A stretch of DNA of 64,000 bases, taken from positions 3,863,859 through 3,927,858 of the forward strand of contig NZ_KI912613.1 of assembly GCF_000519325.1 (NCBI RefSeq), given 5' to 3'. The translations under genes and the position numbers were made by a program. The stretch comes from Patulibacter minatonensis DSM 18081 (GTDB lineage: Bacteria; Actinomycetota; Thermoleophilia; Solirubrobacterales; Solirubrobacteraceae). Under the pieces are notes generated by a model. The model made no database searches and had not been told where the DNA came from. It saw only the letters and a list, made by a program, of their open reading frames with translations. Positions 47,826-49,570 of this stretch are shown one piece after another; the stretch's first letter is position 1; every line of letters begins with the position of its first letter.

Positions 47826-47844
47826 CCGCAACGAGCACGATCAG

Positions 47845-47938
47845 CACATCCAGAGGGGGGGAGGGACTGGCCCTTTGAACCCCCGGCAACCACCGCGAAA
47901 TCGCCGACGCGGAGAGGTGCCAATTCCAGAGAGATGTG
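47845..47938 (+). ncRNA. SAM-I (S-box) riboswitch
   Basis: The conserved S-box core is readable: GAGGGACTGGCCC, then CCCCGGCAACC and GGTGCCAATTCC, in the right order and spacing. P1 is closed by CACATC (47845-47850) with GATGTG (47933-47938). P3 is ACCGCG...CGCGG. SAM binding stabilises P1 and turns the gene off in known members. Downstream there is no T-run terminator. Instead a hairpin CCTCCGCC/GGCGGAGG (47957-47982) ends seven bases before the ribosome binding site GAGGAG, and its CCTCC arm could also pair with that site. Translational control is therefore likely (inference). Confidence 0.93.
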
Positions 47939-48002
47939 TGGCTGGACCAGTACGGACCTCCGCCACACCCCTTCGGCGGAGGACCGACGAGGAGTTCAGC
48001 CC

Positions 48003-49289
48003 ATGTCTGCCAGTTCCCTGACCTGTCGCGAGTGTGGCAGCGAGTACCCGCTCGAGGCCCACTTCGTCTGCTCGAAGTGCTTCGGGCCGCTCGAGGTGAA
48101 GTACGAGGAGCACCCGTCCGCGGGCGATCCCGACGCGATCCGCCGCCGCATCCAGGCCGGGCCGCCGAACATCTGGCGCTACGCCGACTTCCTGCCGCTC
48201 GACCGCGTCCCCACGCTCGCGGCCAGCGGCCCCGGCCAGACCCCCGGCCTCGAGGGGCTCCCCGCCGGCTCGACGCCGCTCGTCCGCGCCGACAACCTCG
48301 CCAAGGAGCTCGGGCTCCGCGAGGTCTGGGTCAAGAACGACGCCGCGAACCCGACGCACTCCTTCAAGGACCGCGTCGTCGCCGTCGCCGCCGCCCGCGC
48401 CAAGGAGCTCGGCTTCACGACGCTGGCGTGCGCCTCGACCGGCAACCTCGCCAACGCCGTCGCCGCCGCCGGCGCCGCGCTGGGGATGCCCGTCTACGTC
48501 TTCATCCCGGCCGACCTCGAGGAGCAGAAGATCCTCGCGACCGGCATCTACGGCGCCACGGTCGTCACCGTCCGGGGCAACTACGACGACGTCAACCGGC
48601 TCTGCACCGAGATCGCCGGCGAGCGCCCCGACTGGGCGTTCGTGAACGTGAACATGCGCCCGTACTACGCCGAGGGCTCGAAGACCCTGGCGTACGAGAT
48701 CGCCGAGCAGCTCGGCTGGCAGACGCCGGACCGCATCGTCGCGCCGATCGCCTCCGGGTCGCTCTTCACGAAGATCGGCAAGGGCTTCCAGGAGTGGAAG
48801 GACCTCGGGCTGCTCGACGCCGACCAGGCGCTGCCGATCATGAGCGGCGCGCAGGCCGCCGGCTGCAACCCGGTCGCCCACGCCTTCGAGCAGGGTCACG
48901 ACGTCTGCCGCCCGGTCAAGCCGGACACGATCGCCAAGTCGCTGGCCATCGGCAACCCCGCCGACGGCCCCTACGCGATCGAGCTCGCCCGGCAGACGGC
49001 CGGCACGATCGACCAGGTCACCGACGACGAGATCCGCGCGGGCATCGCGCTCCTCGCGCGGACGACCGGCATCTTCACCGAGACGGCCGGTGGCGTCACG
49101 ACCGCCACCCTCAAGAAGCTCGCCGACAGCGGACGGATCGGCGCCGACGAGCGCGTCGTGATCGTCATCACCGGCGAGGGCCTCAAGACGTTGGATGCGG
49201 TCCGGGGCACGTTCGAGTGCCGCGAGATCGACCCCAACTTCGACCAGTTCGAAGCGACCGCGGAACACCGCACGGAGGTGTCGGTCTGA
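48003..49289 (+). CDS. thrC: Threonine synthase (or threonine-synthase-like PLP enzyme)
   Basis: 428 residues from ATG 48003 with GAGGAG nine bases upstream. An N-terminal zinc ribbon has C8, C11, C23 and C26 (CRECG, CSKC). The PLP fold has the Schiff-base lysine K122 in NPTHSFKDRVV, and CASTGNLANAVAAAGAA and ITGEGLKTLDAV typical of fold-type II threonine synthases. These act on O-phosphohomoserine. Here the gene sits under a SAM riboswitch and overlaps a CysO-like sulfur carrier. That suggests either threonine synthesis tuned to methionine need or a sulfur-incorporating role (homocysteine formation). Confidence 0.9.
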   Translation: MSASSLTCRECGSEYPLEAHFVCSKCFGPLEVKYEEHPSAGDPDAIRRRIQAGPPNIWRYADFLPLDRVPTLAASGPGQTPGLEGLPAGSTPLVRADNLAKELGLREVWVKNDAANPTHSFKDRVVAVAAARAKELGFTTLACASTGNLANAVAAAGAALGMPVYVFIPADLEEQKILATGIYGATVVTVRGNYDDVNRLCTEIAGERPDWAFVNVNMRPYYAEGSKTLAYEIAEQLGWQTPDRIVAPIASGSLFTKIGKGFQEWKDLGLLDADQALPIMSGAQAAGCNPVAHAFEQGHDVCRPVKPDTIAKSLAIGNPADGPYAIELARQTAGTIDQVTDDEIRAGIALLARTTGIFTETAGGVTTATLKKLADSGRIGADERVVIVITGEGLKTLDAVRGTFECREIDPNFDQFEATAEHRTEVSV

Positions 49290-49570
49290 TGGCCGAAGTC
49301 ACGTTCAAGATCCCGACCCAGCTGCGCGCCGCCACCGGCGGCGAGGGCACGGTCAAGGCCGAGGGGACCACCGTCGGCACGGCGCTGGAGCACCTCTTCG
49401 GCAACCACCCGGAGCTCCGCTCGAGCCTGACGGACTCCGAGGGCGACCTGCGGCGGTTCGTGAACGTCTACCTCGACGGCGAGGACATCCGCTTCGGCGA
49501 CGGCCTCGGCACCGCGGTCGCCGACCGGCAGGAGCTGCAGATCCTCCCCGCCGTCGCCGGCGGCCGGTAG
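49289..49570 (+). CDS. CysO-like (MoaD/ThiS-family) sulfur carrier protein
   Basis: 93 residues, ubiquitin-like beta-grasp. It overlaps thrC by one base (TGATG), with GGAGG ten bases upstream. It strongly resembles mycobacterial CysO: FKIPTQLRAATGG, then RFVNVYLDGEDIRFGDGLGT, AVADRQELQILPAVAGG. Such proteins carry sulfur as a C-terminal glycine thiocarboxylate for cysteine (CysO-CysM) or homocysteine synthesis. The mature C-terminus must be Gly-Gly, but here one Arg follows (AGGR-stop), so a protease of the Mec/JAMM type may have to remove it. No such protease gene is in the window. Confidence 0.92.
   Translation: MAEVTFKIPTQLRAATGGEGTVKAEGTTVGTALEHLFGNHPELRSSLTDSEGDLRRFVNVYLDGEDIRFGDGLGTAVADRQELQILPAVAGGR

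What the first reader, a model, noticed from the sequence alone, without database searches (positions are those of the whole stretch)
47845..49570. SAM-I riboswitch controls threonine synthase plus a CysO-like sulfur carrier
S-box riboswitches are known to control methionine, cysteine and SAM genes. Here the first gene is annotated by family as threonine synthase and the second, overlapping by one base, is a thiocarboxylate-type sulfur carrier. O-phosphohomoserine is the branch point between threonine and methionine. A coherent hypothesis is that this PLP enzyme takes sulfur from the carrier to make homocysteine from O-phosphohomoserine, parallel to CysO-CysM for cysteine and to the carrier-dependent methionine route known in Wolinella.
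Basis: partly seen in the sequence, partly recalled or inferred. Interest (0 to 1): 0.8.

Follow-up and report, generated by a model that had tools for sequence, protein, structure and literature searches.

The report
SAM-riboswitch MetM/MetO homocysteine synthesis operon
A SAM-sensing RNA switch sits in front of an enzyme that looks like threonine synthase and a small sulfur-carrier protein; the pair is almost certainly the MetM/MetO route to methionine described in Streptomyces in 2024, so the finding is correct but is a new example of something already known.

Summary
A full SAM-I aptamer lies at 47843-47940 (74 bits), the only one in the genome, followed by a ThrC-like PLP enzyme (48003-49289) and a CysO/SAMP1-like carrier (49289-49570). 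The proposed mechanism (O-phosphohomoserine + carrier thiocarboxylate -> homocysteine) is best supported but already published: MetM/MetO of Streptomyces (Hasebe et al. 2024), whose metM also has a SAM riboswitch. New evidence: the genome (Patulibacter) has a separate canonical hom-thrC-thrB set. MetM-type proteins form a 100/100 clade apart from ThrC, with ThrC active-site motifs replaced in essentially all of 127 relatives. In a class sample, 49 of 50 metM genes have SAM-I 25-172 nt upstream, and 28 of 50 metM genomes lack MetX and MetY. Enzyme activity and SAM binding were not tested.

The parts
47843..47940 (+). SAM-I (S-box) riboswitch aptamer
   Evidence: Rfam RF00162, 74.2 bits, full-length; sole copy in the genome
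47953..47986 (+). Hairpin between aptamer and ribosome-binding site; probable part of the expression platform
   Evidence: Aligned in 7 Patulibacter leaders; 11 pairs, 97% of cells paired, one pair C-G to U-A on both sides in 3 sequences. Weak statistics; no T-run, no terminator found
47990..47994 (+). Probable Shine-Dalgarno AGGAG of metM, 8 nt before ATG
   Evidence: sequence; inference
48003..49289 (+). metM: threonine-synthase-like PLP enzyme, predicted O-phosphohomoserine-dependent homocysteine synthase, with N-terminal CxxC...CxxC ribbon
49289..49570 (+). metO: CysO/SAMP1-like sulfur carrier, C-terminus ...ILPAVAGGR

Best explanation
This is a metM-metO operon. The carrier MetO is activated at its C-terminal Gly-Gly (after loss of one extra Arg) and thiocarboxylated, most likely by the MoeZ-like ThiF-rhodanese protein of this genome. 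MetM, a PLP enzyme of the threonine synthase family, takes O-phosphohomoserine made by Hom and ThrB, eliminates phosphate and accepts sulfur from MetO to give homocysteine, which MetH methylates to methionine. High SAM folds the S-box aptamer and lowers expression of both genes, probably at translation, so SAM closes this branch while the separate ThrC keeps making threonine. Shown here: the riboswitch, the gene pair, the separate ThrC, the partner genes, the conserved active-site differences and the conserved linkage. Inferred: substrate, sulfur transfer, trimming, SAM response and level of control.
For: The riboswitch is full-length and unique in the genome, and is conserved in front of metM in 49/50 class members and in 16/16 loci fetched from outside the class. 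A published equivalent exists: MetM/MetO of Streptomyces with an upstream SAM riboswitch, as reported in PMC12172450. The same genome holds hom, thrB and a canonical ThrC (39% identical to MetM). MetM and ThrC separate on a 100/100 branch of length 2.74. In all or nearly all of 127 MetM sequences the ThrC motifs are changed: VNSxNPxRxEGQK to VNVNxRxYYxEGSK, GNAGN to ASGS, STGNT to STGNL, PASA to TAGG. Of 122 metM loci where a carrier could be sought, 111 have a carrier ending PAVAGG (+0-6 aa) next to metM, as counted by that pattern. 28 of 50 metM genomes lack MetX and MetY, and in a few relatives SAM-I precedes metY. Partner genes present: MoeZ-like ThiF-rhodanese, JAMM protease, MetH.
Against: No activity or ligand binding was measured. 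This genome has a complete MetX-MetY-MetH route, so MetMO is not needed in principle. The reference MetM sequence (S. albulus) was not available, so orthology rests on the described gene order, the riboswitch and the clade. Microcystis ThrC, described as 51.6% identical to MetM, showed threonine synthase and deaminase activity in vitro (PMC12172450). 11 metM loci have no recognisable carrier next door. The Arg after GG would have to be removed first.
Confidence: 0.88

Rival explanations
1. A second threonine synthase whose expression follows SAM, with the carrier used elsewhere (for example by CysM).
For: It passes the broad thrC model TIGR00260; the Microcystis relative made threonine weakly in vitro (PMC12172450).
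Against: A canonical ThrC already sits in hom-thrC-thrB. Several residues invariant in ThrC are replaced in all relatives. It fails all narrower threonine-synthase cutoffs. An S-box on a threonine gene would be odd. The genome has another CysO-like carrier, next to MoeZ and near CysM.
Confidence: 0.06
2. MetM makes homocysteine from O-phosphohomoserine with free sulfide, and MetO is only a helper or serves another enzyme.
For: 11 metM loci lack a recognisable adjacent carrier; in one of them (L154) a sulfite/nitrite-reductase-like frame lies downstream instead (read by eye).
Against: 111 of 122 metM loci keep a GG-type carrier adjacent; in Streptomyces metO was reported as a sulfur-carrier gene linked to metM.
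Confidence: 0.1
3. The pair makes cysteine (or both amino acids) with O-phosphoserine or O-acetylserine, like CysM-CysO.
For: The carrier's nearest solved relative is Mtb CysO (3dwg), and it is 55% identical to this genome's own CysO-like carrier.
Against: The enzyme is far closer to ThrC than to CysK/CysM. The genome has a CysM-like gene near a JAMM gene, and a CysO-like carrier beside MoeZ about 4 kb away. The S-box fits methionine.
Confidence: 0.04

Closest known systems
MetM/MetO route of Streptomyces (Hasebe et al. 2024, Appl Environ Microbiol 90:e01247-24; read only through PMC12172450)
   Same: ThrC-like enzyme plus adjacent sulfur carrier; SAM riboswitch upstream
   Different: Here in Patulibacter (Thermoleophilia); metX-metY also present; carrier has an extra C-terminal Arg; activity untested
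HcyS/HcyD/HcyF-MetY route of Wolinella (from general knowledge)
   Same: Homocysteine from a carrier thiocarboxylate; carrier with extra residue(s) after GG needing a JAMM protease
   Different: Wolinella uses a MetY-type enzyme and an acylated homoserine; here a ThrC-type enzyme and, by inference, O-phosphohomoserine
CysO-CysM-Mec+ of Mycobacterium tuberculosis (from general knowledge; 3dwg)
   Same: Same carrier family; PLP fold-type II enzyme; JAMM and MoeZ-like proteins present in this genome
   Different: Makes cysteine from O-phosphoserine; enzyme of the CysK/CysM family
Canonical threonine synthase ThrC (1uim, 2d1f, 6cgq)
   Same: Same broad family; catalytic SFKDR lysine motif kept
   Different: Several active-site motifs replaced; extra N-terminal CxxC...CxxC ribbon; 39% identity to the genome's own ThrC

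Membership tests
SAM-I riboswitch (RF00162) | Score above the curated threshold over the whole model | tested here: met
   74.2 vs 44.4 bits, model 1-108
SAM-I riboswitch (RF00162) | Binds SAM and switches expression | not testable with these tools
   needs in-line probing and reporter assays
MetM/MetO (Hasebe 2024) | ThrC-like protein distinct from a separate ThrC | tested here: met
   hom-thrC-thrB elsewhere; clades split 100/100
MetM/MetO (Hasebe 2024) | Adjacent sulfur-carrier gene downstream | tested here: met
   49289-49570, ThiS/SAMP1 models
MetM/MetO (Hasebe 2024) | SAM riboswitch upstream of metM | tested here: met
   reported for S. albulus in PMC12172450
MetM/MetO (Hasebe 2024) | Sequence clusters with the characterised S. 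albulus MetM | tested here: inconclusive
MetM/MetO (Hasebe 2024) | Makes homocysteine from O-phosphohomoserine and carrier thiocarboxylate | not testable with these tools
   needs enzyme assay
MetM/MetO (Hasebe 2024) | Stands in for missing conventional homocysteine genes (a context feature in Streptomyces; I do not count it as defining) | tested here: not met
   metX and metY are present here, though absent in 28 of 50 metM genomes
Canonical threonine synthase | Conserved NSxNPxRxEGQK and GNxGN motifs | tested here: not met
   key columns replaced in 120-127 of 127 MetM-type sequences, the window's own included
Sulfur carrier of ThiS/MoaD/CysO type | C-terminal Gly-Gly, free or after trimming | tested here: inconclusive
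   GG present but followed by Arg; JAMM candidate present

The most novel reading that the evidence does not exclude
In Patulibacter two homocysteine routes run side by side: a MetX-MetY sulfide route without a SAM riboswitch, and a MetM-MetO route from O-phosphohomoserine that SAM alone gates. SAM would then decide how O-phosphohomoserine is shared between threonine and methionine and whether carrier-bound sulfur is used. The carrier is made as an inactive precursor (GG-Arg) that a JAMM protease shared with CysO must trim, adding a second control point.
Probability: 0.3. Interest if true: 0.45.

Novelty: new member of a known kind. Interest (0 to 1): 0.3.

Why it matters
Broad family models call this enzyme threonine synthase. 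The survey suggests that metM with a SAM-I switch is usual in many Actinomycetota lineages, and that about half of the metM-bearing Thermoleophilia sampled have neither MetX nor MetY. Pathway predictions that call such organisms methionine auxotrophs could then be wrong, and a 'threonine synthase' under an S-box can be re-annotated with a simple motif test (VNVNxRxYY and ASGS).

Tried and rejected
The Hasebe paper itself is not held. One leader (L106) was in the wrong orientation in the first alignment and was left out of the second. A first pattern for carrier tails found nothing because it was too strict; it was replaced. A first structure string had the wrong length. Folding of the leader gave an alternative pairing of the P1 3' strand with the start-codon region when P1 is open, which would invert the usual logic; by eye it is not conserved between species, so no switching model is claimed. 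AlphaFold was not used: sequence similarity to solved ThrC already fixes the fold. 'Conventional methionine genes missing' was tested and rejected for this genome. MetB, MetZ and other Cys/Met PLP enzymes were not searched across the class, so 'no MetX/MetY' does not prove that MetM is the only route there.

Full report
WHAT IS THERE. The window comes from a 5.52 Mb single-contig genome whose nearest named relatives are Patulibacter species (P. americanus 92% identical in the enzyme). A complete SAM-I aptamer lies at 47843-47940 with 74.2 bits. It is the only SAM-I match in the genome. Then come a hairpin at 47953-47986, a probable ribosome-binding site AGGAG at 47990-47994, and the ORF 48003-49289. 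The next ORF, 49289-49570, starts on the last base of the stop codon. The first protein is PALP; it passes TIGR00260 thrC but misses the cutoffs of all narrower threonine-synthase models. The second is a ThiS-family protein, above cutoff for SAMP1, with the Mtb CysO entry 3dwg as best solved match. It ends ...ILPAVAGGR, so one Arg follows the Gly-Gly.

THE REST OF THE GENOME. A canonical threonine synthase (39% identical to the window enzyme) sits with hom and thrB. An adjacent metY-metX pair lies near sulfate-assimilation-like genes (read by eye), with no SAM-I and no other Rfam match. MetH is present, full-length but slightly below the curated cutoff (974 vs 1011 bits). A cystathionine gamma-lyase-like gene exists. 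One region (5.170-5.186 Mb) holds a CysM/CysK-like gene and a JAMM-family protease and, some 4 kb further on, a CysO-like carrier (ending GGAA) beside a rhodanese-ThiF protein of the MoeZ/MoeB kind. Candidates for every step of charging a carrier are therefore present.

COMPARISON WITH THRC. 127 MetM-type proteins were aligned with 21 ThrC proteins, all from this genome or relatives, and the matched cores of five solved ThrC sequences. The motif VNSxNPxRxEGQK of ThrC is VNVNxRxYYxEGSK in MetM (Ser to Asn in 126/127, Arg to Tyr in 127/127, Gln to Ser in 127/127). GNAGN becomes ASGS, STGNT becomes STGNL, and PASA becomes TAGG. From general knowledge of the Thermus enzyme, the Ser and Arg of the first motif bind the substrate phosphate and the GNxGN loop lies at the PLP phosphate; I could not check this in a held paper. 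MetM proteins also have an N-terminal CxxC...CxxC ribbon absent from nearly all of the genome ThrC compared. The tree splits the two groups with 100/100 support and a branch of 2.74 changes per column.

CONSERVATION. In 99 genomes drawn from the class, 50 have a metM gene and 49 of these have SAM-I 25-172 nt upstream; the exception is a gene cut by a contig end. Of 19 loci fetched afterwards, 16 lie outside the class, including Nonomuraea gerenzanensis, and three were in the class sample; all have SAM-I. In the phylum sample 94 of 246 genomes have a strong metM match. Of the 50 metM genomes in the class, 28 lack MetX and MetY, 21 have both and one has one of them; of the 49 without metM, 35 have both. 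The association (Fisher p 0.002) ignores kinship and is descriptive only. In three relatives (G003, G015, G069) SAM-I also stands before metY. Carriers next to metM, scored by a sequence pattern: 85 end exactly in GG, 26 have one to six more residues, 5 could not be seen because the contig ends, and 11 loci have no recognisable carrier. All seven loci from the window genome and its close Patulibacter relatives (80% or more identical) end GGR or GGC.

MECHANISM. The published MetM/MetO route (Hasebe et al. 2024) accounts for the main features. I did not have that paper; I rely on PMC12172450, which states that MetM is a homocysteine synthase of Streptomyces, names metO as a sulfur-carrier gene, and says that S. 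albulus metM has an upstream SAM riboswitch. That MetM uses O-phosphohomoserine is in the title of the 2024 paper and in PMC12172450; that thiocarboxylated MetO is the sulfur donor is from my memory of the abstract. Expected steps: Arg removed by JAMM; MetO adenylated and thiocarboxylated by the MoeZ-like protein; MetM removes phosphate from O-phosphohomoserine and adds sulfur at the gamma carbon; MetH completes methionine. The expression platform is not solved. No terminator is seen. In some relatives the aptamer ends only about 25 nt before the gene, which leaves little room for a terminator and argues for control of translation. One pair of the hairpin covaries among seven closely related leaders, which is weak support.

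VERDICT. Observation confirmed; interpretation supported and already published for Streptomyces; new member of a known kind. What is added is the breadth of the metM-SAM-I linkage, the coexistence with MetX-MetY, and the tailed carriers.

Noticed in passing
L022 (G000:C1:1104000-1112000): A ThiF (E1-like) gene, a large ORF with a JAB domain, a small ubiquitin-like protein and an E2-like protein lie together: looks like a bacterial ubiquitin-type conjugation cluster, unrelated to metMO. Named by eye from ORFs and two Pfam hits.
   Followed up: no
L058, L059, L064, L069, L076, L109, L142, L151-L154: metM-type genes with no recognisable carrier gene next door; the five of these scanned (L142, L151-L154) do have SAM-I. 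L154 has a sulfite/nitrite-reductase-like frame downstream.
   Followed up: partly
G085:C1:2108650-2109836: metM appears split over two frames, in a genome that also has metX and metY: a decaying gene or a sequencing error.
   Followed up: no
L057, L088, L095, L105, L061: Public records titled Bifidobacterium breve or Chlamydiae carry metM loci typical of Solirubrobacterales; the record titles look wrong.
   Followed up: no
L020:10358-10636 (- strand): The genome's other CysO-like carrier ends GGAA, also past the reactive GG, so both carriers seem to need trimming.
   Followed up: partly
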